This document shows positions 50,889 to 63,585 of a DNA stretch of 64,000 bases, in pieces. The stretch is from Malaciobacter marinus (GTDB lineage: Bacteria; Campylobacterota; Campylobacteria; Campylobacterales; Arcobacteraceae). The notes under the pieces are model-generated. The model was given only the letters and a program-made list of their open reading frames with translations, was not told where the DNA came from and searched no databases. The stretch covers positions 372,001 to 436,000 of the forward strand of contig NZ_CP032101.1 in the NCBI RefSeq assembly GCF_003544855.1, in the 5' to 3' direction. The first letter of the stretch is position 1; every line of letters begins with the position of its first letter. The position numbers were made by a program, and so were the translations under genes.

Positions 50889-53000
50889 TTAAAATCTATA
50901 ATTAAATGCAACATTAAAAGTTCTAGGATTTCCAACTGCTCCCATATATCCTACTGTTGTATCATGAAAACCATCTAAGAAATACTCTTTATTTGTTATA
51001 TTTTTTACACCAAAATATAAATCCCAGTTATCTTGTTCATAACCAATTTTTGCATTATAAACTGTATAAGACTCAACTTTTTTTTCATTTGATCTATCAA
51101 ACTGTTTTTCTCCTGTATGCAATGCTTCAAAGTTTGCAAAAATACCATTTGGATTTCTATACTTTAATCCTACATTAAAATCATATTTAGGAATCATTGC
51201 TACTTTATTATCTTTATAGTTTTTATTTGCAATTAAATCTTCATAATCTCCATATTTTGCAGATACTAAACCAAAGTTCCCACTTAGTGTTAGATTACTT
51301 GTAAGTGAATATGAAGTTTCAAATTCTAAACCTTTTATATCAACTTCTGTTACATTTGCTTGCATAATAGTTGTAGGATTTACTTGAATTCTGTCTTGAT
51401 AATCATCAACTTTTGTATAAAAAGCAGCCATATTAAAAGTTAAACCTAAATTAGGAAATTTAGATTTTATACCAACTTCTAATGCATTTGATATTTCTGG
51501 ATCAAACTCTGCAAGCTCTTTATTGTCAACTGCATATGAAAAACCACCAGCTTTATAACCTTTTGAAGCTGTTGTATAAACCATCATATTTTTATTTATG
51601 TAATAATCAAGTGAAAGTTTTGGAAGAACAATCGAGTTTGTTTTTTCCATGTTTTTCATAGGAGTTGCTGTGTTTACTCCTGCAAAAGTATGAGTTCTTT
51701 TATCCATACTTCTTTTGGATTTTTCATATCTAAGTCCTGTTGTTAATCCTAATCTATCATCAAAAAACCTTATGGTACTTTGTCCAAAAATTGCTATATC
51801 TCTTGAACTTAAATCAGCTTTCATCTTATCTTCTGAATATAAAGGAACTCCCATCATATTTGCATAAGTTTCATCAAGTTTATAACCTGTTTCATCATTT
51901 GCATTCTCTTTATTAAAGTATGTTCCAACTATCCAATTAAAAGAGCTACTGTTTGTTGAAGATAGTCTAAACTCTTGACTTAAAGAATCAAGTTCTCTTG
52001 AGTTAAATCCTATAAAGTTTTTACTTGGAGAAAAATCTCCATCTAAAGTACTTTGATTATCCATATCTCTATAACTTGTAATAGAAACAAAATCATACTC
52101 TTGTGCACTATAATCAAATTTTAAGGCTGAAGTTTTTGTTTTAGCTTGACTGTCACCTTTATAATTAAATGATGATTCAAACTCATCTAAACTTGAAAGT
52201 CCAGTAGCATTTTTATATTTACCTTTTTCCATTGAAGTCATGGGAAAGCCTCCATCATCATCTAACTTTTGGTATCCTAAAATTAAACTTGCTTCTAAGT
52301 CATCTGTTACTTTATAAAGCATATTTGCTCTTAATGACAAAGTATCATGATTATCTATATCTGTTGAAGTATATAAATTCTTGATATAACCATCTCTTTT
52401 AGACTTTAATGCAGACATCTTTAAAAATAGTTTATCTTGGATTAATGGAAGGTTTAAAGATGCCATAATTTGTTTTGAGTCATAATCTCCTGCTTCAAGA
52501 TTTACTCTTCCTGATAGTTCATTTGAAGGTTTTTTAGTAATTATATTTATAACTCCAGCCTCTGTATTTTTCCCATATAAAGTCCCTTGTGGGCCTTTTA
52601 ACACTTCAATCCTTTCTACTTCAAAAAGTGGAGAGTCAAAAGCAAATAAATCTGCATAAGATACATCATCAATATATAGTGCAACTGCAGGTTCTCCTAC
52701 TCCTGTATTTGAAATACCTCTTATTGCAATTCTTGAAAAGTAGTCCCTAGAACCACCATGCATAGTTGTTAAGTTTGGAATATAAGATGCAATTTCTCTA
52801 GTGTTTTTTATACCTGCATCTTCAATAAAAAATTCATCTAAGACATTTACTGACATAGGTACTTTTTGAATATTTTGTTCTGTTTTTTGTGCAGTAACTG
52901 TAATATCTGATAACTCAACACTTTTTTTATCTGCCATAAGTGAATTTGATAAAATCACTAAAGATGCACTAAGTGATAATAGTACATGTTTCTTGTTCAT
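50889..53000 (-). CDS. TonB-dependent siderophore receptor 1 (FyuA-like)
   Basis: This is a 703-residue outer membrane receptor with a signal peptide (ends at about LMA, residue 23), a TonB-box-like segment (SDITVTAQ), and a plug domain with IRGISNTGVGEPAVALYIDD and VERIEVLKGPQGTLYGKNTEAGVINI. The C-terminal beta-barrel ends in NVAFNYRF with the terminal Phe typical of OMPs. It is paired divergently with an AraC regulator at 53113 and lies 109 bp upstream of the ABC operon. Family context suggests import of a ferric siderophore of the yersiniabactin/pyochelin type. Confidence 0.9.
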   Translation of the reverse strand: MNKKHVLLSLSASLVILSNSLMADKKSVELSDITVTAQKTEQNIQKVPMSVNVLDEFFIEDAGIKNTREIASYIPNLTTMHGGSRDYFSRIAIRGISNTGVGEPAVALYIDDVSYADLFAFDSPLFEVERIEVLKGPQGTLYGKNTEAGVINIITKKPSNELSGRVNLEAGDYDSKQIMASLNLPLIQDKLFLKMSALKSKRDGYIKNLYTSTDIDNHDTLSLRANMLYKVTDDLEASLILGYQKLDDDGGFPMTSMEKGKYKNATGLSSLDEFESSFNYKGDSQAKTKTSALKFDYSAQEYDFVSITSYRDMDNQSTLDGDFSPSKNFIGFNSRELDSLSQEFRLSSTNSSSFNWIVGTYFNKENANDETGYKLDETYANMMGVPLYSEDKMKADLSSRDIAIFGQSTIRFFDDRLGLTTGLRYEKSKRSMDKRTHTFAGVNTATPMKNMEKTNSIVLPKLSLDYYINKNMMVYTTASKGYKAGGFSYAVDNKELAEFDPEISNALEVGIKSKFPNLGLTFNMAAFYTKVDDYQDRIQVNPTTIMQANVTEVDIKGLEFETSYSLTSNLTLSGNFGLVSAKYGDYEDLIANKNYKDNKVAMIPKYDFNVGLKYRNPNGIFANFEALHTGEKQFDRSNEKKVESYTVYNAKIGYEQDNWDLYFGVKNITNKEYFLDGFHDTTVGYMGAVGNPRTFNVAFNYRF

Positions 53001-53049
53001 TTTTTTACCTTTAAATATAGTTTTAATTTGATTTGCAATATACTTATAA

Positions 53050-53064
53050 TGATAATGAAAATCA
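53050..53064 (-). promoter_or_regulatory. Fur-box-like site between receptor 1 and AraC regulator 1
   Basis: TGATAATGAAAATCA matches the 7-1-7 Fur pattern TGATAATnATTATCA at 12 of 14 positions. It lies between divergent genes and could control both. Confidence 0.6.
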
Positions 53065-53112
53065 ATAATAAAGTTATGATAATTGTATTATTAATTAATA
53101 AAAAGGTATTTT

Positions 53113-54090
53113 GTGTCAAAATTATATGATTTGAATGATTTAGAGAACTTTTTTGTAAAAGACTTAAAAGATAATATAAAAGTAGATTTTCCAAATGAAA
53201 GTGGAAGTGTTGAAGTAGAAAAAACTATAATATCTGATGATATTTTTTTATATAAAAATAGCTTTAATTTCAAGGATAATGTATCTTTAGAATCCTCTTC
53301 TAGTGAGGAGGGCTTATGTATAAATATTGTATTAGATGGCAGTTTAAAATATACAGATAAAATTTTAGATGAACAAACAAATAAATGTGCAAATAGTATG
53401 TTTGTAAAGTATATTAATCAAAGTCAATCTTTATTTGAAGTTAATAAAGATAGTATCTTAAAAGATATTGGAATAATAATTAAAGGTGATTTTTTACAAG
53501 AGTTTTTTTTAGAGAAAATATCTAATAAAGAGTTAGTTTTGAAAAACTATGAAAAAAATATTTCTACTAATTTTAAGACTGCACAAACAAATCTAAAAAC
53601 AAAAATTTTAGCCCATGAGATTTTTAATTCTCCTTATGAAGGAGAGTTGCATAAAATCTATTTACAAAGTAAAGTTTATGAGATAGTTTTTCATGAGTTA
53701 TCTGATATTTTACAAGTAAATAGGCTAAAAAATATAAAAAAAGAGGTAAAACTTACAAAAGAAGATATTTATGCCTTACAAAAAGCAAAGAGTTTAATTT
53801 GTGAAAAAAGATTTTTTCTTAATCTTCCAAAACTCTCAAAAGAAGTAGCTTTAAATGAGTTCAAATTAAAGTATGGTTTTAAAAAGCTTTTTAATACTAC
53901 ACCAGGGGCTTTAATCTTGGAGTTTAGAATGCTTGAAGCAAGAAAATTATTAGAAAGTAGTGAGCTTAATATTACTGAGATTTCAAAATTAGTAGGTTAT
54001 AAATATGTTCAAAGCTTTACAACTGCATTTAAAAAAAGATTTAATGTAAATCCAAAAGAGTTTATAAAATCAAGAAAATACTACTATTAA
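53113..54090 (+). CDS. AraC-family regulator 1 (PchR/YbtA-like)
   Basis: This 325-residue protein has a variable N-terminal ligand-sensing part and a C-terminal double HTH from about residue 225. Its signature residues are LPKLSKEVALNEFKLKYGFKKLF for the first helix pair and ISKLVGYKYVQSFTTAFKKRF then NPKEF for the second. The start is GTG with AAAAGG 6 bp upstream. Divergent location next to receptor 1 fits siderophore-responsive regulators such as PchR and YbtA, which activate their cognate receptor when the ferric siderophore is present. Confidence 0.9.
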   Translation: MSKLYDLNDLENFFVKDLKDNIKVDFPNESGSVEVEKTIISDDIFLYKNSFNFKDNVSLESSSSEEGLCINIVLDGSLKYTDKILDEQTNKCANSMFVKYINQSQSLFEVNKDSILKDIGIIIKGDFLQEFFLEKISNKELVLKNYEKNISTNFKTAQTNLKTKILAHEIFNSPYEGELHKIYLQSKVYEIVFHELSDILQVNRLKNIKKEVKLTKEDIYALQKAKSLICEKRFFLNLPKLSKEVALNEFKLKYGFKKLFNTTPGALILEFRMLEARKLLESSELNITEISKLVGYKYVQSFTTAFKKRFNVNPKEFIKSRKYYY

Positions 54091-54114
54091 GAAAAGAGGA
54101 CTCTCTTTTCTTAA
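54087..54114. terminator. bidirectional hairpin between AraC regulator 1 and receptor 2
   Basis: A perfect 12-bp inverted repeat (54087-54098 and 54103-54114, loop of 4) includes both convergent stop codons. Confidence 0.6.
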
Positions 54115-56210
54115 AAACTATATCTTAATCCAACTCCTATTTTTCTTGGGTCTCCAAAAGTGATTCTTGACATTCCTCCTGCTGTATCAAATGCTGTTAC
54201 ATACTTTTCGTCAAAAATATTGTTTGCATAAGCATAAAAATCCCAATCTTTATATTTATAACCAAGCTTAACATTTGTTGTTATGTAATTATCTTGTTTA
54301 TCCATTTTATTTTTTGAATCATGAAAAAAATATGTTGGCCCTTGAAGATTTATATCTGCTCTTGAATAAAATCCACTAGGGTTAAAATATCCTATACCAA
54401 CTCTTGCTGTATATTCAGGAGTTAATTGAATCTTTTCATCATCATATTTTGCATCACCTGCATCATACTCTTTATATTTTGCATCTGTAAATCCAAATGC
54501 ACTTGTTAATTCCCAATTGCTATTTGGATAGTGACTAATCTCTAGTTCAACACCTTGAGAATAAGCTTTTTTAGCATTATCTGTTAACCATACAGAAGTA
54601 GATAAAGATTTATAAACATGAACATCTTTTATATCCATTCTAAAAATTGATAAAGTTAAATCTGTTTTATCAAATGAACCTTTTAATCCAATCTCATAGT
54701 TTGTAGATTTTTGTGCTTCAAATGAGTTTGCATCTTTATCATCATTCATAGCAAAATAGTTAAATCCACCTGGCATATATCCTTTAGAAATTGATGTATA
54801 TGTTGTCCAATCTTCATTTATTTTATATGAAAGGGCAAGCTTTGGTAAAAAAGTATTCCATGTTTTTTCATCATTAAAGTGATTCATTGCTGGACCAGAA
54901 ACACCAACTGGAAGCATATACATATCTAAATCTATATCTTTTTTTATTCTTTGGTATCTTCCACCTAAAGTTAATTCAAAATCTTCATAAAATGGAATAG
55001 TAACTTGTCCAAATAGAGCTTGAGTTTTACTATTTGTTATTGATTGGGCATCTTGAACCATTTTTGTTCCCATCATATTAAACTGCATTCCATATGGACC
55101 ATTATCAAGTTTTTCATCTTCAAAATATAAACCAGCAACCCATCTAAAATCTTCACTATTTGTACTTGAAAGTCTAAACTCTTGTGTCCAAGATTTTGTT
55201 TCACTTTTATTCATTTGATAAAGCTCTTTAAAAGCAGGATTATCAGAATAATCTGCATCATACTCTCCATCAATATTAAACTTTTTATGTGTAGTAAGAG
55301 AACTAAAATCAAAGTTATTAAAAGCATATTTTGCTTGAAAACTTTGTGCTTGAGTATCCAATATTTCAACAGTTGGAACATCAAAACTAAAGTGTTCGGC
55401 ATCATCTCTATTTGCATCACTTACATCTATTTGGTCACTTTGTGAATATCCATTTGACCAATGTTTTTTTTCATGTTCATCTGTAAGATTTAATTTTAAA
55501 CTTAATCTATCTGTAGGTTTATATAAAAAGTAAGTATTAACTTTTCGGCTATTTTGTCTATTTGCATGGTCATTCATACCAGGATAAGTGTTTTTTATCC
55601 AACCATCATCTTTTTGAAAGTTTCCATTAAGTCCCCAAAATAGTCTATCTTTTATAATAGGACCATTTATATAAAAATTAGCAAGATTGTAGTTATTACT
55701 TCCATACTCTAAAGTTAATGAACCATTATAGTAGTTATTTGCTTCTTTTGTCACAATATTAATAACTGCTCCAATTGCATCTTTTCCATATAAAGTTCCT
55801 TGAGGGCCTCTTAATACTTCTACTCTTTGTACATTTGCTAAAGCAGGGTTAAAGTTATATCTATTTGCCATGGGAATACCATTGATATAAACTACAACAG
55901 GGTTATTATTTGTAAACAAAGAGGTATTTAATCCTCTAAAATTTATATAAGTTCCAGAAGTAGAGTTTGCTGCATACATTCCTGGTACTTGATTTATCAC
56001 ATCAATTACGGTTTTGATGCCTTTTTCTTGTAGTGTAGTTTCATCTAAAACTGTTATACTTTGAGGTACATCTTTTATATTTTCCTCAATCTTATTTGCA
56101 GTTACGGTAATACTATTTAAATTAGTAGATTTTTTTTCATGCTCACTATGTGCATAAGCAATAGAAGAGCAAATCAAACTTGATAGTATTAAACTAATGG
56201 TTTTATTCAT
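54111..56210 (-). CDS. TonB-dependent siderophore receptor 2 (FyuA-like)
   Basis: This 699-residue outer membrane receptor has a signal peptide, a TonB-box-like NSITVTAN segment, a plug with NFRGLNTSLFTNNNPVVVYING and VQRVEVLRGPQGTLYGKDAIGAVINI, and a barrel ending IGVGLRYSF. It is similar in order and plug motifs to receptor 3, so the two are paralogs, while receptor 1 is more distant. It is divergent from AraC regulator 2 across a region with a Fur-box-like site. Ligand unknown, ferric siderophore inferred. Confidence 0.9.
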   Translation of the reverse strand: MNKTISLILSSLICSSIAYAHSEHEKKSTNLNSITVTANKIEENIKDVPQSITVLDETTLQEKGIKTVIDVINQVPGMYAANSTSGTYINFRGLNTSLFTNNNPVVVYINGIPMANRYNFNPALANVQRVEVLRGPQGTLYGKDAIGAVINIVTKEANNYYNGSLTLEYGSNNYNLANFYINGPIIKDRLFWGLNGNFQKDDGWIKNTYPGMNDHANRQNSRKVNTYFLYKPTDRLSLKLNLTDEHEKKHWSNGYSQSDQIDVSDANRDDAEHFSFDVPTVEILDTQAQSFQAKYAFNNFDFSSLTTHKKFNIDGEYDADYSDNPAFKELYQMNKSETKSWTQEFRLSSTNSEDFRWVAGLYFEDEKLDNGPYGMQFNMMGTKMVQDAQSITNSKTQALFGQVTIPFYEDFELTLGGRYQRIKKDIDLDMYMLPVGVSGPAMNHFNDEKTWNTFLPKLALSYKINEDWTTYTSISKGYMPGGFNYFAMNDDKDANSFEAQKSTNYEIGLKGSFDKTDLTLSIFRMDIKDVHVYKSLSTSVWLTDNAKKAYSQGVELEISHYPNSNWELTSAFGFTDAKYKEYDAGDAKYDDEKIQLTPEYTARVGIGYFNPSGFYSRADINLQGPTYFFHDSKNKMDKQDNYITTNVKLGYKYKDWDFYAYANNIFDEKYVTAFDTAGGMSRITFGDPRKIGVGLRYSF

Positions 56211-56256
56211 TTTGTTTCCTTATATTATCTAAAGTATTTTTAAGATAACATTATAA

Positions 56257-56271
56257 TGATAATCATAATTA
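56257..56271 (-). promoter_or_regulatory. Fur-box-like site between receptor 2 and AraC regulator 2
   Basis: TGATAATCATAATTA fits TGATAATnATTATCA at most positions and lies in the shared divergent promoter region. Confidence 0.55.
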
Positions 56272-56325
56272 ATTATAATATATTTTTTATGTATTATGGA
56301 TTTATTTTTAACTTTGAGGGATTAA

Positions 56326-57318
56326 ATGTCATATCGAATAAGTAGTATTGATTTTGAAGATTTTATATTAAGTAGTAATGAGTGTAATTGTTGGCAACAT
56401 AATATTCCAAATGATTTAGGAATTATAAAAAGTAACAAGCAAATTATTGAAGATAATATTTTCATGTTTAAAACAAGTGCATCAATAAACAAAAAATTAG
56501 AGATTAAATCTTTTTCAAAAGTTTCTGGACTTTGTATTGCTATAAATCTTGAAGATGATGTAATTTATACTGATAACAGTAATAGTTCAAAACTTTTGTT
56601 TAAAAAAGATGAAATTTTAATAAAATATGTAAATAGTTATGATGGTTCAATTATTTTTGATAATTCTACTAAAACAAAATCCCTTTGTCTTGTAATAAGA
56701 GACTCTTTTTTAGAAAAATATTTCTTTAAAGGTTTTAATAATACAAAGTTATTAAGAAAAAATTTTCAAAATCATATCTCAACAAATATAAAAAAATCTT
56801 TAGCAAGTTATAAAACAAAAATCTTGGCAAATGAGTTATACAACTCTCCTTATGAGGGAGATTTAGATACTTTATATTTGCAAAGTAAAGCATATGAGAT
56901 TATTTATAGTGAATTTAAAGATATATTTAATTTAAATAAAGAAAATATTTGTACTTGTAAGAAAGTAAAATTTAACTCTTTAGATATTGAATCATTAAAA
57001 AAAGCAAAAGAGTTGATCTTATCTTCTCAAAAAATCTATTCTATAAGTGATTTAAGTAAAAAAGTTGCTTTAAATGAATTTAAATTAAAATTAGGATTTA
57101 AAGAGCTTTTTAATACAACTCCTGGAAGTTTAGTACTAGAAGCAAGAATGCAAAAAGCAAAAGCATTATTAAGTACAGGTGATTATAATATTGCTGAGGT
57201 TTCAAGTATTGTAGGTTATAAACATCAACAAAGTTTTACAGTAGCTTTTACAAAATATTTTAAAGTTAATCCAAAAGAGTTAGTAAAAAATAGAACTTAT
57301 TATTTTAGGCTAAAGTAG
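56326..57318 (+). CDS. AraC-family regulator 2 (PchR/YbtA-like)
   Basis: This is a 330-residue protein with GAGGG before its ATG. The N-terminal two-thirds are divergent from the neighbouring regulators. The C-terminal HTH region (from about 235) has LSKKVALNEFKLKLGFKELF and the second HTH segment LSTGDYNIAEVSSIVGYKHQ, which is nearly identical to that of regulator 3 at both protein and DNA level. It is divergent from receptor 2, and the expected role is ligand-dependent activation of that receptor. Confidence 0.9.
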   Translation: MSYRISSIDFEDFILSSNECNCWQHNIPNDLGIIKSNKQIIEDNIFMFKTSASINKKLEIKSFSKVSGLCIAINLEDDVIYTDNSNSSKLLFKKDEILIKYVNSYDGSIIFDNSTKTKSLCLVIRDSFLEKYFFKGFNNTKLLRKNFQNHISTNIKKSLASYKTKILANELYNSPYEGDLDTLYLQSKAYEIIYSEFKDIFNLNKENICTCKKVKFNSLDIESLKKAKELILSSQKIYSISDLSKKVALNEFKLKLGFKELFNTTPGSLVLEARMQKAKALLSTGDYNIAEVSSIVGYKHQQSFTVAFTKYFKVNPKELVKNRTYYFRLK

Positions 57319-57330
57319 TTTACTTTAGCC
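57308..57330. terminator. bidirectional hairpin between AraC regulator 2 and receptor 3
   Basis: A perfect 10-bp inverted repeat (57308-57317 and 57321-57330, loop GTT) overlaps the stop of regulator 2 and precedes the convergent end of receptor 3. Confidence 0.55.
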
Positions 57331-57336
57331 ATTTAG

Positions 57337-59454
57337 TTAAAAACTATATTTTAATCCTAATCCTATAAATCTTCCTTTTCCATAAGTTAATTGCCTAAAT
57401 TCTGCCATCTCTTCTACTGCAACAATATAACTTTCATCTGTAATATTTTTTACATAAGCATAAATATCAAAATCTTTAAATAGGTATCCAATTTTTGCAT
57501 TTGCAACTGTGTAAGAGTCTTGTTTTAAACTATTTTGAGCATTAAAATACATATCTCCTTGATTTTTTATATCAAATCTTCCATATAAACCATTTCCTGC
57601 ATAGTATGATAAGCCTAAGTTAATTGAGTGACTAGGTGTTCTTTCTATTTTTTTATTTTTATTGTCATTTCCATTAGAGTCTTTATAATTACTATATTTT
57701 GCTTGAATTATACCAATAGCTGTGTCAATACTCCAATTATCATTGATATTATATTTAAGTTCTAATTCTAATCCTTTTGATGTGGCTTCTCCAGCATTTG
57801 ATGTATACATCATGCTTGTTACTGGGTCTGTACTGTAAACATGAATGTCTTCAATATCCATATAAAAAATTGAAGATGATAAATATAGTTTATCTTCTAA
57901 AAGTGAACCTCTAAGCCCTAATTCATAATTTATTGAAGTTTGTGCATCAAATCTATTTTCTTTTTCACTTCCATTTGAAGCAAAGTTGTTGTAACCTCCT
58001 GGTAAATAACCTTTTGAAACAGTTATGTAAGTTGAAAGTTCATTATTAAGTCTTTTAGAAAGAGCAATCTTAGGTAAAAAAGTATTCCATGTATGTTCTT
58101 CATTAAATTCAAAATAAGGAGTTGCATTAGTATTTGTTGGATGCATATAGTTATCTAAATTCATTTTCTTTTTTACTTTTTGATATCTACCTCCAAGTGT
58201 TAATTCATAATCTTCTAAAAATGGAATAACAACTTGTCCAAAACTTGCATAAGTTTTACTAGTAGCTTTTGATTTGGCATTAAACTTTACATCAACTCCA
58301 GTACCAAAAGGATTTCCTGCTAAATAACTTGGGTATTCTTGTCCATAATTGTGAAAGTTAAATTCATCTTTTTCAAAATATAAGCCAAATACATATCTTA
58401 AATAATTATTTTCTCCTGTGATTCTAAATTCTTGAGAAAAGTTTTTAGAAGTTGCATCTTGAAACATTGACATTTGATCATAATTTGGATTGTTACCTAA
58501 ATCAACATCCCATGTTCCATCAATATCAACTTTTTTGTTAGCTGTAATAGAAGATAAGTTTACATTTTCATTAAAATTATATTCTAATTTAAGTGATTGA
58601 GCCTTTGATTTTGTTTTCATGTATGTATCAGACTCATAATTCACATTTTTGAAATCTTCTCTTTTGTAATCATTAATAGTTTCATTTTGAGGTATAGCTC
58701 CACCCTCAAATCCATATCTATAGTTTTTATCATCAAAAAGACTTAAATTCATACTTAATTTATCTGTTGGCTTATAATAAAAAGTTGTATTTAATTTGTG
58801 AAATTTGCTTTTATCAATATCTTTATTTTGATTTTCATTATGATTTGTTTGCCAACCGTCATCTTTTCCTAAAAGTCCATTTAGTCCAAAAAAGAGTTTA
58901 TCTTTTATAATTGCTCCGCTGATATTAAAGTTTGCTTGTCTAAAATTGTTGCTTCCATACTCTAAACTTACAAAGCCTTCTGTTTCATTTGTAGGTTTTT
59001 TTGTTACTATATTTATAACTCCGCCAATACTATCTTTGCCGTATAATGCACCTTGAGGACCTCTTAGTACTTCAACTCTTTCTATGTTTAATATTGATGC
59101 ATCAAAAGCATAAACACTACTATGTGGAATTCCATCTATATATATAACTACAGGATTATTATTTGTAAATATTGAGGTATTGATTCCTCTAAAATTAACT
59201 CTATCAGAATACATAAAAGTTGAAGATAAATTAGGAATATATTCAATAATTTCTGGAATACTTTTTATCTCTTTTTCTTCAATAGTAAAATTATCTATAA
59301 TTGAGATACTTTGCGGTATTTGTTTTATAGTTTCATCCATTTTATTTGCACTAACTGTTATCTCATCAAGTTTTATATTTTTAGTTGTAGTAGCAAGAAG
59401 AGTACTACTTGCTACTAATGAGACTACAATTATATTTGTTAACTTTTTATTCAT
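57337..59454 (-). CDS. TonB-dependent siderophore receptor 3 (FyuA-like)
   Basis: This is a 705-residue outer membrane receptor with a signal peptide, a TonB-box-like DEITVSAN segment, a plug with NFRGINTSIFTNNNPVVIYIDG and VERVEVLRGPQGALYGKDSIGGVINI, and a barrel ending IGLGLKYSF. It is a paralog of receptor 2. It is divergent from regulator 3 and convergent with regulator 2. Its ligand is unknown but probably a ferric siderophore. Confidence 0.9.
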   Translation of the reverse strand: MNKKLTNIIVVSLVASSTLLATTTKNIKLDEITVSANKMDETIKQIPQSISIIDNFTIEEKEIKSIPEIIEYIPNLSSTFMYSDRVNFRGINTSIFTNNNPVVIYIDGIPHSSVYAFDASILNIERVEVLRGPQGALYGKDSIGGVINIVTKKPTNETEGFVSLEYGSNNFRQANFNISGAIIKDKLFFGLNGLLGKDDGWQTNHNENQNKDIDKSKFHKLNTTFYYKPTDKLSMNLSLFDDKNYRYGFEGGAIPQNETINDYKREDFKNVNYESDTYMKTKSKAQSLKLEYNFNENVNLSSITANKKVDIDGTWDVDLGNNPNYDQMSMFQDATSKNFSQEFRITGENNYLRYVFGLYFEKDEFNFHNYGQEYPSYLAGNPFGTGVDVKFNAKSKATSKTYASFGQVVIPFLEDYELTLGGRYQKVKKKMNLDNYMHPTNTNATPYFEFNEEHTWNTFLPKIALSKRLNNELSTYITVSKGYLPGGYNNFASNGSEKENRFDAQTSINYELGLRGSLLEDKLYLSSSIFYMDIEDIHVYSTDPVTSMMYTSNAGEATSKGLELELKYNINDNWSIDTAIGIIQAKYSNYKDSNGNDNKNKKIERTPSHSINLGLSYYAGNGLYGRFDIKNQGDMYFNAQNSLKQDSYTVANAKIGYLFKDFDIYAYVKNITDESYIVAVEEMAEFRQLTYGKGRFIGLGLKYSF

Positions 59455-59497
59455 TAGTTACTCCATAAATTTAATTTAATCGATAATATATTATAAT

Positions 59498-59512
59498 TAA
59501 TACTCACTATCA
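59498..59512 (-). promoter_or_regulatory. Fur-box-like site between receptor 3 and AraC regulator 3
   Basis: On the minus strand TGATAGTGAGTATTA resembles the Fur pattern. It is nearly the same 15-mer as the site upstream of receptor 4 (62807-62821), differing only at the next-to-last base. Confidence 0.55.
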
Positions 59513-59575
59513 ATTTCAATAATATTTTAAGTAGGATAGTATTTCTTTTTAATCAAATAGTATTTTGGAGTAAAA

Positions 59576-60520
59576 ATGTCATCAAATAATTTAACTTTTG
59601 AATTTGATAATAAAAATTCAAAAATGATTTTGCCTAAAGATAAAGTTATTGCAAATATAACAGATAAAAAAATAACAGACTCAATTTACTTTATAAAATC
59701 AAATTTGATTTTCAAAGAAGACCTTGTAGTTGAATCAAAATCTAAAATAGATGGAATTATGTTAGATTTTAATCTTAGTGGAGATATAACTTATCATTCA
59801 AAAATTTCAAATCACGGATTACAAACTTTTAAAAATAGAACTGATATTGAATTAGTAAATGAAGAAGAAACAGAATCTTTTGTAAAAAAGGGTGAAGTAA
59901 ATAAAATCACTTTAGTAGTAAAAAAAGAGTTGTTATCACAAATTTTACCAGATTGTGAAGTATTTAAAATATTAAACTATTTAGAAAAAAATAATTGTCA
60001 TAAAATATTATCAAGTAAATTAACTGGCAATAATGTAAATAAACTATTAAACCAGTTACATATGAATGAACTATATGTTAATGATTTGAATACACTTTTT
60101 TTACAATCAAAAGTTTTAGAATTAGTTTATTATGAATTTAATACTCTTTTTACAACAAAAGATAATAAACAAAAGATTAAATTTAGTGAAGAAGATATGC
60201 AGGCTTTAAAAAAAGCAAAAGTAATTATCAATTCATTAGATCCTAATTGTACAATTTCTTATTTATCGAAAAGAGTTGCGTTAAATGAATTTAAGTTAAA
60301 ATATGGATTCAAAAAGTTTTTTAATACTTCCCCTGGAGCCCTAGTGCTAGAAACAAGAATGCAAAAAGCAAAAGAGTTATTAAGTACAGGTGATTACAAT
60401 ATTGCTGAGGTTTCAAGTATTGTAGGCTATAAACATCAGCAAAGTTTTTCGACTGCTTTTTTTAAGTATTTTAAAGTTAATCCAAAAGAGTTGGTAAAAA
60501 ATAGAACTTATTATTTTTAA
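59576..60520 (+). CDS. AraC-family regulator 3 (PchR/YbtA-like)
   Basis: This is a 314-residue AraC protein, ATG at 59576 with GGAG 5 bp upstream. The N-terminal sensing part is not like those of regulators 1 and 2. The C-terminal double HTH has LSKRVALNEFKLKYGFKKFF and then the same LSTGDYNIAEVSSIVGYKHQ segment as regulator 2, ending LVKNRTYYF in both. It is divergent from receptor 3, which it probably activates. Confidence 0.9.
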   Translation: MSSNNLTFEFDNKNSKMILPKDKVIANITDKKITDSIYFIKSNLIFKEDLVVESKSKIDGIMLDFNLSGDITYHSKISNHGLQTFKNRTDIELVNEEETESFVKKGEVNKITLVVKKELLSQILPDCEVFKILNYLEKNNCHKILSSKLTGNNVNKLLNQLHMNELYVNDLNTLFLQSKVLELVYYEFNTLFTTKDNKQKIKFSEEDMQALKKAKVIINSLDPNCTISYLSKRVALNEFKLKYGFKKFFNTSPGALVLETRMQKAKELLSTGDYNIAEVSSIVGYKHQQSFSTAFFKYFKVNPKELVKNRTYYF

Positions 60521-60584
60521 TTATTTGATAAATCTTTAAATATAATATACTCAGATTGACACTATTATAGTTACAGTAATCATT

Positions 60585-60719
60585 GCAGGTAAAATATTTT
60601 GATAGCATAATCATCATTAATGAGAATAGAGATTACCCTGCTTGTTAAAAAGCTTAATAATACTGCACCTATACAGCCTGTAAAACCATGAACTAAGCCA
60701 ATTTTTGACTTAGTTCATG
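60585..60719. other. structured intergenic region between AraC regulator 3 and receptor 4
   Basis: The 232-bp gap between 60520 and 60753 holds two inverted repeats: GCAGG-TAA at 60585-60592 with TTACCCTGC at 60633-60641 (one bulge), and a perfect 11-bp stem CATGAACTAAG/CTTAGTTCATG at 60687-60697 and 60709-60719. The second is followed by T-rich sequence on the plus strand and could terminate transcription. No reading frame of note was seen here. Confidence 0.45.
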
Positions 60720-60752
60720 TAAAAACTTTTTGTTTTTTCAAACATAATTTTC

Positions 60753-62720
60753 TTAGAATTTATAAGAAAGAGTAACTTTGAAGTTTCTTCCTGGCTCATA
60801 ATCCGTTGCATCACCAAATGCTCTTAAATCCCCTTGAAAAGAAGAGTGAGAAGCATAAGCTTTATCAAATATATTATCAATTCCAGCAATTACTTTTAAA
60901 CCTTTTATTGATTTTGGTGTATATTTAACAGCTAAATCATGTACATGATAACCCTCTTTTTCTATATCTTTTACATCATTTTCATCTTTAACAAAAATTG
61001 ATTGCCAAGAAAGTCCAATTTCAGGTGTAGTTTGATAGTTTAATCCAAGAGTAAATGTATCTCCTGTTTCTTGTTCAAGTGCTTCGCCTGTATAAAGTAC
61101 TTCTGAATCCATTCTTGAGTATGTAAATAAAGCATTAAAGTCATTTAAATTATATGCAAAGCTTGCTTCTATACCTTTTGTTTTTGTATCTCCTAAATTA
61201 ACCATTTGGTATGCATTATTAAAGCCAATATCATCATTGATTTTTGTAACATAATATTTAGTTAATATTCCAATATTATCTGCACCTAGTACATTATCTT
61301 TGATATATTTAAACCCAAGCTCATTGTTATAACCTGTTTCTGATTTAATACTTGAGTTTTGTGTTGTAGCTCTTGTTCTATAACTTGCAAAAACCTCTTG
61401 CATTGGAGCACCTTTAAATAGTGTTGTATGACTTGCAAGTAATGAGAAACTATCTGTAACTGCATATTCAGCAGCAAGAGAGTAAGTTATCTTTTTTTCA
61501 CTTACATCAGCAACAACTCCATCAAGTTTATATTTTGTAGCTCTAATTCCTGGAGTTAATATAAGGCCATTATTAAAATCAATTGTATCTTCAATAAATA
61601 GTGCGAAAGTTTTAGCTTCTTCATCATCTCCATAAGCATCTCCATCAGTAGTTACTTCACTTGTTTGAACATCATAAGAAAGTCCATATGTAAAAGTATT
61701 AAGAATATCTTTATAGTTGATATTTGATTGAGCTTTTGTGCTAAAACCTTTATTTTCTACAACAGCATTGAAAACATCTCCTCTTCTATTAGAGTTTGAT
61801 TCATGTCTTGTTAAATCCATTTCATTGAAATATAAAGAAGAGTTTATAAGTAAATTTTCACCTTTATCAACTGTATGCTTTAATGTGTAAGTGTTTCTAA
61901 TATATTCAGTTGGATGAATTAAATCTGCTTGAGCTCCTCTTGCAACATTAATTGCTTCATTTACTGCTGTACTAAAATTTGGTCTTGGGTGATAATCACC
62001 TTCATCTTCTAATCTATCATAAGAAAAAGATACTCTTTGTGTATCGTCTAAATCAATACCATACTTTAATAAAAGGTTTTTAATAGTACCCTCTCTTCCT
62101 TTCTCTTTGGTTCCATCTCCAGTTTTCCAATTTTCATTTTCAATATGGTCATAATAAATAAAGAAATCAGAGTTATTTGTTATCTTTCCATATGTAGCAA
62201 GTGATGCTCCAACACTATCATTACTATTATATTTAGTAGAAACAATTGCTCCAACTTTCTCACCATTTTCTAAAAAGTCTTTTCCATCTTTTGTTTCAAA
62301 CTCTATTGAACCTCCTAGTTCTCCATGAACTACAGAGTTTGCACCCACTTCAATATTTACTTTTTTTAGAATATCAGGATTAACTTTTAGAGTACTTTGA
62401 TGGTGAAACATATCAACATTAGGCTGTTTTGCACCATCAATAGTAATATTGATATCTTCATCTTTTATTCCTCTAATGATAATTTTATTATTCATTGAGT
62501 GACTTCCTCCAACATCAACACCTGGTAATCCTCTTAATAAATCACTTAAGTGGTCAGCTTGCTTAGTTTCAATTGAATCTTTTCCTAAGTTTAAAGAAGA
62601 ACTAACAATTTCAGTTTCCCAAACATCAACTGAATTTATCTTATTTGTATCTTTTGCATTTGCATTTAAAGAAAAAATTGCTAAAGAAGCAATTGAACTT
62701 AAAAGTATTTTTCTATTCAT
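60753..62720 (-). CDS. TonB-dependent receptor 4 (haem/hemoglobin/transferrin-type)
   Basis: This is a 655-residue outer membrane receptor with a signal peptide (ends ANA at residue 22), a plug domain with LLRGLPGVDVGGSHSMNNKIIIRGI and ITIDGAKQPNVDMFHHQSTL, and a barrel ending NFKVTLSYKF. The plug motifs match the haem/lactoferrin/transferrin receptor branch rather than the FyuA-like branch of receptors 1-3. It is divergent from a two-component system, with a Fur-box-like site between them. Haem or another iron complex is the likely ligand. Confidence 0.85.
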   Translation of the reverse strand: MNRKILLSSIASLAIFSLNANAKDTNKINSVDVWETEIVSSSLNLGKDSIETKQADHLSDLLRGLPGVDVGGSHSMNNKIIIRGIKDEDINITIDGAKQPNVDMFHHQSTLKVNPDILKKVNIEVGANSVVHGELGGSIEFETKDGKDFLENGEKVGAIVSTKYNSNDSVGASLATYGKITNNSDFFIYYDHIENENWKTGDGTKEKGREGTIKNLLLKYGIDLDDTQRVSFSYDRLEDEGDYHPRPNFSTAVNEAINVARGAQADLIHPTEYIRNTYTLKHTVDKGENLLINSSLYFNEMDLTRHESNSNRRGDVFNAVVENKGFSTKAQSNINYKDILNTFTYGLSYDVQTSEVTTDGDAYGDDEEAKTFALFIEDTIDFNNGLILTPGIRATKYKLDGVVADVSEKKITYSLAAEYAVTDSFSLLASHTTLFKGAPMQEVFASYRTRATTQNSSIKSETGYNNELGFKYIKDNVLGADNIGILTKYYVTKINDDIGFNNAYQMVNLGDTKTKGIEASFAYNLNDFNALFTYSRMDSEVLYTGEALEQETGDTFTLGLNYQTTPEIGLSWQSIFVKDENDVKDIEKEGYHVHDLAVKYTPKSIKGLKVIAGIDNIFDKAYASHSSFQGDLRAFGDATDYEPGRNFKVTLSYKF

Positions 62721-62806
62721 TATATTCCTTATCTCTTGTGTGTAGTTTTAAATTGAAAAATAAAAATTGAATTGTATTCACCTTTTACTTTTAACAAACT
62801 TTAAAA

Positions 62807-62821
62807 TGATAGTGAGTATCA
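62807..62821. promoter_or_regulatory. Fur-box-like site between receptor 4 and the response regulator gene
   Basis: TGATAGTGAGTATCA is a 15-mer palindrome with a 7-1-7 structure (TGATAGT against TGATACT, one mismatch), close to the Fur consensus. It sits between the divergent receptor 4 and response regulator starts. Confidence 0.6.
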
Positions 62822-62862
62822 TAACTAATATAAATCACATTCAAATCACAATTGGAGATTTA

Positions 62863-63585
62863 ATGAACAAATTAATGGAATTTTTACAAAAAACTGTAGA
62901 AATATTAATAGTAGAAGATGAAATGGTATTAGCAATTGATATGGAAAGCTCATTGGAAGAGATGGGATATGAAATATCAGGAATAGAATCAACAGCACAA
63001 GATGCAATAAAACATGTAAATGAAAATAAGCCAGATATTGTAATTATGGATATTAACTTAAAAGGCTACAAAAGTGGATTAGAAGCTGCAAAAGAGATTT
63101 GGCAAACTCATAAAATACCAATTATTTTTTTAACTTCTTATAGTGATGATTTAACAGTTAAAAAGTCTATGGAGAGTGAACCTTATGCATATTTAATAAA
63201 GCCTTGTAGAGAAAAAGATATTGATATTGCTATTAAAACAGCACTTCATAAGCACAACTATTTTTTTAAAAATAAAAATCTAATGAGCGAGCAAATAGTT
63301 ATTGATTTAGCCCAAAACTATAAGTATGATAGAACAAAAAGAGTTTTATCAAAGGGCTTAAATAGTATAAAATTAACAGGAAATGAATTAAAATTTTTTG
63401 ATATTTTAAGTGAAAATCCAAAAGAGTCAGTTAGTTTTGAGCAAATAATTTCATATATCTATAGAGATGAATCAGTATCTGATATGGGAAAACTAAGAAC
63501 ATTAGTATATAGATTAAGAGCAAAGCTTGATGCTGAGGTTTTTGAAAATATTTATGAGTTTGGCTATAGGTTAAAACTTGACTAG
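62863..63585 (+). CDS. OmpR-type response regulator (REC plus winged HTH)
   Basis: This 240-residue response regulator has a receiver domain with ILIVEDE (acidic pocket D19/E20), phosphoacceptor Asp63 in VIMDINLKG, the Thr in FLTSYSDD and the Lys in LIKPCREK. The output domain at the C-terminus matches OmpR/PhoB winged helix (GNELKFFDILSENP, then RTLVYRLRAKLD). An in-frame ATG lies at 62767, but 62863 has GGAG 5 bp before it and a natural start, and the earlier one would overlap the Fur-box-like site. It overlaps the sensor gene by 8 bp. Confidence 0.9.
   Translation: MNKLMEFLQKTVEILIVEDEMVLAIDMESSLEEMGYEISGIESTAQDAIKHVNENKPDIVIMDINLKGYKSGLEAAKEIWQTHKIPIIFLTSYSDDLTVKKSMESEPYAYLIKPCREKDIDIAIKTALHKHNYFFKNKNLMSEQIVIDLAQNYKYDRTKRVLSKGLNSIKLTGNELKFFDILSENPKESVSFEQIISYIYRDESVSDMGKLRTLVYRLRAKLDAEVFENIYEFGYRLKLD

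What the first reader, a model, noticed from the sequence alone, without database searches (positions are those of the whole stretch)
56326..60520. AraC regulators 2 and 3 share a nearly identical HTH segment but diverged sensor domains
The stretch around LSTGDYNIAEVSSIVGYKHQ is almost the same at DNA level in both genes (roughly 57170-57300 and 60380-60510), while the N-terminal halves are hard to align. That is the expected trace of duplication with domain shuffling or gene conversion, and predicts shared operator sequences and possible cross-regulation of receptors 2 and 3.
Basis: seen in the sequence. Interest (0 to 1): 0.5.

Follow-up and report, generated by a model that had tools for sequence, protein, structure and literature searches.

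The report
Regulator wearing its neighbour's DNA-binding half
One of three neighbouring iron-uptake-type regulators appears to have had the last part of its DNA-binding region replaced by its neighbour's through DNA recombination, yet its predicted control site was not replaced with it; this shows how such switches can be rebuilt from parts.

Summary
Confirmed, with corrections. Regulators A2 (56326-57318) and A3 (59576-60520) share 24% of residues over the sensor part, but 50/55 residues and 149/165 nt over the last 55 codons. The shared part is not the whole HTH domain, only linker helix plus HTH2. A3's sensor groups with A3 orthologs of other genera; its HTH2 groups with the A2 genes of its own genus (AU p 1e-5 against an A3 clade there, 3e-113 against A2+A3 in the sensor). 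Best breakpoint 60314-60316 (0/20000 permutations). So A3 carries its own HTH1 and A2's HTH2: partial gene conversion or crossover, apparently older than the split from the nearest relative. A similar joint is visible elsewhere: in genome G146 the A2 gene switches inside HTH2 to the A3 end of G070 and on into A3's downstream gene; receptor 3 and most of A3 are absent. 'Shared operators' is not supported: all three promoter gaps carry a 21-bp direct repeat, but in this genome the A2 and A3 sites are the least alike of the three pairs, and A3's site still matches those of its orthologs. Known kind of event, unusual placement.

The parts
56326..57318 (+). A2, AraC-family regulator (330 aa), donor-side gene
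   Evidence: ORF; Pfam HTH_18 2.2e-16, residues 243-321
57105..57306 (+). A2 segment corresponding to the transferred tract (end of HTH1, linker helix, HTH2)
   Evidence: alignment; coordinates by the constant offset of 3211 nt
59576..60520 (+). A3, AraC-family regulator (314 aa), chimeric
   Evidence: ORF; HTH_18 2.5e-17, residues 230-308; trees
60316..60517 (+). A2-derived tract in A3 (estimated left edge): linker helix (residues 253-271) and HTH2 (276-299) to the stop codon; informative sites in the last 55 codons are A2-like in 14 of 15
60287..60322 (+). HTH1 recognition helix of A3 (residues 238-249); the estimated breakpoint (codon 247) falls near its end
   Evidence: model; breakpoint
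60437..60472 (+). HTH2 recognition helix of A3 (residues 288-299): 3 of the 5 residue differences from A2 within the last 55 codons lie here (292, 293, 296)
57337..59454 (-). R3, TonB-dependent receptor divergent from A3; with A3 the unit present or absent between relatives
54111..56210 (-). R2, TonB-dependent receptor divergent from A2
50889..53000 (-). R1, TonB-dependent receptor divergent from A1
53113..54090 (+). A1, AraC-family regulator, comparison gene without the shared tract
53085..53110 (+). predicted A1 operator, direct repeat GTATT / GTATT at 21 bp
56298..56323 (+). predicted A2 operator, direct repeat GGATT / GGATT at 21 bp (second repeat overlaps the ribosome-binding region)
59539..59564 (+). 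predicted A3 operator, direct repeat GTATT / GTATT at 21 bp

Best explanation
A3 is a recombinant regulator. Homologous recombination between the 3' ends of the neighbouring, same-strand genes A2 and A3 (gene conversion, or a crossover during gain or loss of the R3-A3 unit) put A2's linker-helix and HTH2 codons into A3, which kept its own sensor, HTH1 and promoter. SHOWN by sequence: the mosaic, its breakpoint, the A2-type origin of the tract, and a recombinant A2/A3 joint inside HTH2 in a relative (G146). INFERRED: the event predates the split of the window's genome from its nearest relative (G003), which later lost R3-A3; A3 still activates its divergent receptor gene R3 at a 21-bp direct repeat resembling that of its orthologues; the binding preference that separates A2 from A3 therefore rests on HTH1 and on the three recognition-helix residues that still differ in HTH2. 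A2 and A3 are not expected to cross-regulate more than any other pair of the family.
For: N-terminal protein tree: the six A3 genes are one clade (100/97); AU rejects G000 A3 with the genus's A2 genes, p 2.9e-113. HTH2 DNA tree: G000 A3 groups with A2 of G000/G003/G001 (100/100); AU rejects the A3 clade, p 1.1e-5. Max-chi2 48.5 with 0/20000 permutations, breakpoint 60314-60316. A2-like informative sites: 36/168 before HTH2 but 14/15 inside; the five A3 orthologues have 8/18, 4/18, 5/20, 0/16, 3/18 inside. G000 A2 kept its own HTH2 (160/165 nt to G003 A2), so the transfer was into A3. Second case: G146 A2 matches G070 A2 at 299 of 343 informative sites before, and G070 A3 plus its downstream sequence at 185 of 191 after a switch inside a stretch where the two G070 genes share 45 identical bp. 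Operators. Domain limits: model with mean pLDDT 86.4.
Against: The tract is short (15 informative sites in the last 55 codons), and one short stretch in it (recognition helix 2) is not like the genus's A2 but like A2 and A3 of G070. The HTH1 tree alone shows the A3 clade only weakly (74/88) and does not reject A2+A3 (AU p 0.224), so the left edge could lie further upstream. The two datings disagree: codon matches (44/49 to G000 and G003 A2, 36/45 to G001 A2) put the event after the G001 split, the HTH2 tree puts A3 outside all three A2 genes (100/97). In G003 the R3-A3 gap does not end in HTH2 but just after the A2 stop, at a 3-bp AGG, so its loss used another joint. One A3 orthologue, G070, also gives some breakpoint signal (7/5000, at nt 559-568, not at HTH2), as does G141's (79/5000, at nt 843-852), so the test is not silent on genes without the tract. 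Operators are predicted, not measured; A2 sites of other genomes are closer to A3's (G144 13/16, G062 12/16).
Confidence: 0.85

Rival explanations
1. No exchange: HTH2 is under strong purifying selection for a common operator, the sensors diverge freely after an ordinary duplication.
For: HTH2 is more conserved than the sensor in 116 of 134 ortholog-like pairs, so part of the contrast is expected. High codon identity alone is not unique: two other divergent pairs exceed 44/49 in proportion (22/24 and 20/22).
Against: A3 orthologues with similar predicted operators have quite different HTH2 (35/55 aa to G070 A3); A1-A2 and A1-A3 lack the excess; 44/49 identical codons stand against a mean of 0.633 (sd 0.100) in 1404 pairs; the trees conflict with AU support.
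Confidence: 0.05
2. Whole duplication of A2 to make A3, followed by replacement of the sensor and HTH1 of the copy by those of another regulator.
For: Gives the same mosaic; A3 lies downstream of A2 on the same strand.
Against: R3-A3 in the order R2-A2-R3-A3 exists in G070 and G031 with other HTH2 sequences, so A3 as a gene beside R3 is probably older than the tract; R3 and A3's promoter are orthologous too.
Confidence: 0.1
3. The chimera arose when the R3-A3 unit was integrated by crossover in the HTH2 of the resident A2 gene, which hands the resident 3' end to the incoming A3 automatically; no separate gene conversion. (This is one form of the best explanation, so the odds overlap.)
For: The G070/G146 pair shows such a joint; relatives differ by presence or absence of R3-A3; R3 is 0.71-0.93 identical to G070 in 100-nt windows, R2 0.48-0.80.
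Against: Direction (gain in G070 or loss in G146) is not settled; the region after A3 is not simply that after A2 of G003, about 75-140 nt differ; the general test over 27 pairs is not significant (p 0.35).
Confidence: 0.35

Closest known systems
Gene conversion between bacterial paralogues (concerted evolution; e.g. the full-length cases of PMC6053082)
   Same: Paralogues in one genome more alike in a stretch than to their orthologues; homologous recombination as cause.
   Different: Here only about 200 nt, mainly the second of two HTH subdomains, are homogenised while the rest stays diverged; [quoted passage not shown]
AraC-type regulators beside siderophore receptors (PchR/AlcR type; recalled, names seen only in listings)
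   Same: HTH_18 domain, cupin-like N-terminal barrel in the model, divergent TonB-dependent receptor gene, direct-repeat site in the gap.
   Different: No match or 6 ties these to PchR or AlcR; inducer unknown; the DNA-binding domain is a chimera.
ToxT / Rns full-length AraC structures (4mlo, 6xiu)
   Same: Among the best full-length fold matches by Foldseek (E 5.6e-11 and 2.5e-10).
   Different: 15-16% identity and rmsd above 20 A over the whole chain: the domains match, their arrangement differs or is uncertain.

Membership tests
AraC/XylS transcriptional regulators | C-terminal double HTH domain (Pfam HTH_18) | tested here: met
   A1, A2, A3 at 7.2e-18, 2.2e-16, 2.5e-17, bits above the curated cut-off
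AraC/XylS transcriptional regulators | N-terminal cupin-like sensing/dimerisation domain | tested here: met
   strands 5-116 in the A3 model; AraC 2arc Z 9.0 over 146, BgaR 6nwj Z 10.7 over 148, CuxR 5nla Z 10.7 over 163 residues; fold only, A3 only
AraC/XylS transcriptional regulators | binds DNA and activates the neighbouring gene | not testable with these tools
   only a predicted direct repeat
Siderophore-type TonB-dependent receptors (R1-R3) | plug plus beta-barrel domains | tested here: met
   Plug and barrel models above cut-off in R1, R2 and R3
Siderophore-type TonB-dependent receptors (R1-R3) | TIGR01783 above its cut-off (223.5 bits) | tested here: inconclusive
   R2 240.9 and R3 239.3 bits pass, R1 207.3 does not
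PchR/AlcR-type siderophore-responsive regulators | responds to the ferric siderophore taken up by the adjacent receptor | not testable with these tools
   no assay; no listed NCBIfam equivalog reached its cut-off for A1-A3
Gene conversion / homologous recombination between paralogues | tract with phylogeny different from its flanks | tested here: met
   AU tests, max-chi2
Gene conversion / homologous recombination between paralogues | non-reciprocal: donor keeps its own tract | tested here: met
   G000 A2 HTH2 160/165 nt to G003 A2
Gene conversion / homologous recombination between paralogues | donor and recipient in the same genome at the time | tested here: inconclusive
   A2 genes of the genus are the nearest, but a donor from a relative cannot be told apart

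The most novel reading that the evidence does not exclude
In this family the HTH2-coding 3' end of the AraC gene works as a docking sequence for receptor-sensor cassettes: a unit of receptor, promoter, sensor and HTH1 is gained or lost by crossover in HTH2, so the second half of the DNA-binding domain belongs to the chromosomal site and not to the cassette. Sensor, HTH1 and operator travel together and keep specificity while HTH2 is interchangeable.
Probability: 0.22. Interest if true: 0.65.

Novelty: new variant of a known kind. Interest (0 to 1): 0.42.

Why it matters
AraC regulators read DNA with two HTH units, and it is often unclear which unit sets specificity. Here evolution has apparently swapped one unit between neighbours while the predicted operator stayed. 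The family offers natural chimeras, with unswapped orthologues as controls, to test whether HTH1 alone discriminates between paralogous sites. The joint in HTH2 also suggests how arrays of receptor-regulator pairs can gain and lose members without breaking the regulator gene.

Tried and rejected
Operator shared by A2 and A3 because of the shared HTH: rejected for this genome; all three gaps share the architecture, and A2/A3 are the least alike pair.

General rule that identity drops in HTH2 whenever the downstream context of a cassette differs: 19 pairs with unrelated flank have a mean drop of 0.047, 8 with conserved flank 0.029, one-sided p 0.35 (pairs share genes, so not independent). 4 of 19 drop by 0.14 or more, 0 of 8 in the other group. 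Kept only as the novel case. Of these four, G070/G146 has a donor; the other three (G031_2216129/G141_C10, G051/G072, G072/G141_C65) have none identified.

A scan of 6622 triplets for breakpoints: 677 passed chi2 25, and all but one of the rows printed concern the one near-identical pair G031_2216129/G141_C10, so it is not specific; used only to find candidates. A second conversion into G070 A3 judged by its HTH2: AU p 0.077, or 0.025 after leaving out one long-branch row: undecided. G144 A2 with a foreign HTH2: not decided (AU p 0.225).

Clustering of the residue differences in recognition helix 2 (3 of 5 in 12 of 55 residues): p 0.063, not significant. Fur-like sites against a consensus recalled from memory: A1 15/19 and A2 16/19, above the 95% point of 1000 shuffles (13) but equal to their maxima; A3 12/19, within chance. 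The operator pattern was chosen after looking at the gaps, so its count (15 of 36 gaps, after dropping those under 85 nt and near-duplicates from 48 found; shuffles at most 2) is partly self-selected; the single peak at 21 bp is the better evidence. No Rfam match in 38000-64000. Paper searches listed no paper on HTH2 exchange between AraC genes; I saw listings with abstract starts, plus passages of PMC6053082; most subscription papers are not held.
Full report
WHAT IS THERE. The window's right end carries three receptor/regulator pairs, R1/A1, R2/A2 and R3/A3: each a TonB-dependent receptor on the minus strand and, across a gap of 112-121 bp, an AraC-type regulator on the plus strand. A fourth receptor, R4, lies at 60753-62720. 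R1-R3 resemble siderophore receptors (TIGR01783; R2 and R3 above the curated cut-off, R1 below). No call names the organism.

THE OBSERVATION. A2 and A3 share 24% aa and 49% nt in the sensor part, 67%/71% in HTH1 and 91%/90% in the last 55 codons. In 30-codon windows nt identity goes from 0.44-0.56 (up to column 195) to 0.92. A1 has 0.68 nt identity to A3 in the last 55 codons. Codons are identical at 44 of 49 identical residues; the mean of 1404 divergent pairs is 0.633, sd 0.100. Two other divergent pairs exceed this proportion, on fewer shared residues (22/24 and 20/22).

IT IS A MOSAIC. Relatives of A3's sensor with 52-58% identity occur in 5 other genomes of the family (G144, G070, G031, G072, G141, 104 genomes searched; the next, G008, has 37%). 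The five other genomes of the window's genus have none above 29%. Trees of 30 regulators: sensor, six A3 genes together with 100/97 support; HTH1, A3 genes together but weakly (74/88), A2+A3 not rejected (AU p 0.224); HTH2, G000 A3 with A2 of G000, G003 and G001 at 100/100, A3 clade rejected with p 1.1e-5. A2+A3 in the sensor is rejected with p 2.9e-113. On 183 informative sites the best breakpoint is at 60314-60316, 0 of 20000 permutations as good. Leave-one-out controls: inside HTH2 the other five A3 genes are A2-like at 8/18, 4/18, 5/20, 0/16 and 3/18 sites, G000 A3 at 14/15; two of the five (G070, G141) also give low permutation counts (7/5000 at nt 559-568, 79/5000 at nt 843-852). In the AlphaFold model of A3 (mean pLDDT 86.4) the recognition helix of HTH1 is 238-249, the linker helix 253-271, HTH2 276-283 and 288-299; the breakpoint, at codon 247, is near the end of the HTH1 recognition helix. 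A3 thus has its own HTH1 and A2's linker and HTH2.

WHEN. HTH2 of A3 matches A2 of G000 and of G003 at 44/49 codons each, A2 of G001 at 36/45; G000 and G003 A2 match each other at 50/52, G000 and G001 A2 at 38/48. By this count the exchange is older than the G000/G003 split and younger than the G001 split. The HTH2 tree contradicts the second part, placing A3 outside all three. G003, whose neighbouring proteins are 95-98% identical, has no R3-A3: R4 follows A2 directly. The sequence after A2 in G000 (terminator-like GGCTAAAGTAG) is shared with G070, which also has R2-A2-R3-A3, so loss in G003 is the simpler reading; its junction is just after the A2 stop, at AGG, not in HTH2.

A SECOND CASE WITH THE JOINT VISIBLE. 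In genus g19, G070 has A2-R3-A3 followed by a 599-aa response-regulator/PAS/HD gene; G146, G062 and G054 have A2 directly followed by that gene. G146 A2 follows G070 A2 (299 of 343 informative sites; 19 A3-like, 25 neither), then from a point inside HTH2 follows G070 A3 and the sequence after it (185 of 191; 3 A2-like, 3 neither). The switch lies in the stretch where G070's A2 and A3 share 45 identical bp. This is what crossover between the two HTH2 copies would leave, removing (or, in the other direction, inserting) the 3.2-kb R3-A3 unit. Other ortholog pairs with near-identical sensors and poorly matching HTH2 exist (G031_2216129/G141_C10: sensor 1.00, last 35 codons 0.78), without a known donor. 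A general test over 27 pairs was not significant. I therefore claim two cases with a donor and three candidates without, not a rule.

OPERATORS. A pattern G[GT]AT[TA] repeated at 21 bp is present in 15 of 36 non-redundant gaps of the family (0 on the other strand), shuffles mean 0.23 and at most 2; no other spacing from 8 to 44 bp exceeds 5. Two helical turns apart is a usual layout of AraC-type sites (recalled). In the window: A1 53085, A2 56298, A3 59539. A2's site (GGATT/GGATT) and A3's (GTATT/GTATT) match at 16/39; A1-A3 at 25/39, A1-A2 at 20/39. A3's half-sites match those of its orthologues in G070, G144, G031, G072 and G141 at 14, 14, 15, 16 and 15 of 16, and A2's at 9 of 16. Against a strict reading: four of the five A2 genes of g19 have GGATT/GTATT and the fifth (G144) GTATT/GTATT, which reaches 13/16 with A3's site, so the G/T position is not a fixed code. 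Two other regulators of the window's genome have no such repeat in their gap. Still, taking A2's HTH2 did not come with taking A2's operator. The second repeat overlaps the ribosome-binding region in A2, which weakens that half.

HOW IT MOST LIKELY WORKS. Each regulator is likely an activator of its divergent receptor gene and perhaps of itself, sensing through the cupin-like domain the ligand brought in by that receptor (inferred from arrangement and family). A3's chimeric domain should still read its own site through HTH1. Cross-regulation between 2 and 3 is possible, since all three sites are of one type, but is not made more likely by the shared tract.

KNOWN OR NEW. Gene conversion between bacterial paralogues is well known; PMC6053082 (abstract start in a listing; passages by term search) treats full-length cases. 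An exchange confined to about one of the two HTH units of an AraC regulator, and loss or gain of a receptor-sensor unit through that stretch, appeared in none of the listings of my ten searches, which proves little. I rate it a new variant of a known kind.

Noticed in passing
54111-57318 against L043 6981-10176: Genome G001 keeps A2 and its promoter gap at about 0.82-0.92 nt identity, but the receptor beside it is only 0.52-0.77 identical: receptor and regulator have different histories. The reverse in R3/A3 against G070: receptor 0.71-0.93, regulator 0.50-0.76.
   Followed up: partly
L126 7080-10266: In G144 the A3 orthologue (62%) sits beside a receptor only 48-49% identical to R3 or R2: possible partner exchange.
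   Followed up: no
50889-63585 and L045, L041, L043, L046, L047: The stretch between the conserved ABC transporter genes and a conserved 390-aa/208-aa gene pair is a variable array of receptor-AraC pairs differing even between close relatives.
   Followed up: partly
60579-60705: The spacer after A3 matches a distant place in G001 (1066131-1066255, 73%) and no Rfam family; nature unknown.
   Followed up: no
57306-57318: A2 of the window ends with three extra residues compared with A2 of G003, with one T fewer just before the place of that gene's stop codon.
   Followed up: no
53045-53063 and 56252-56270: Gaps 1 and 2 contain Fur-box-like sequences (15/19 and 16/19 to a recalled consensus); gap 3 has none better than chance.
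   Followed up: partly
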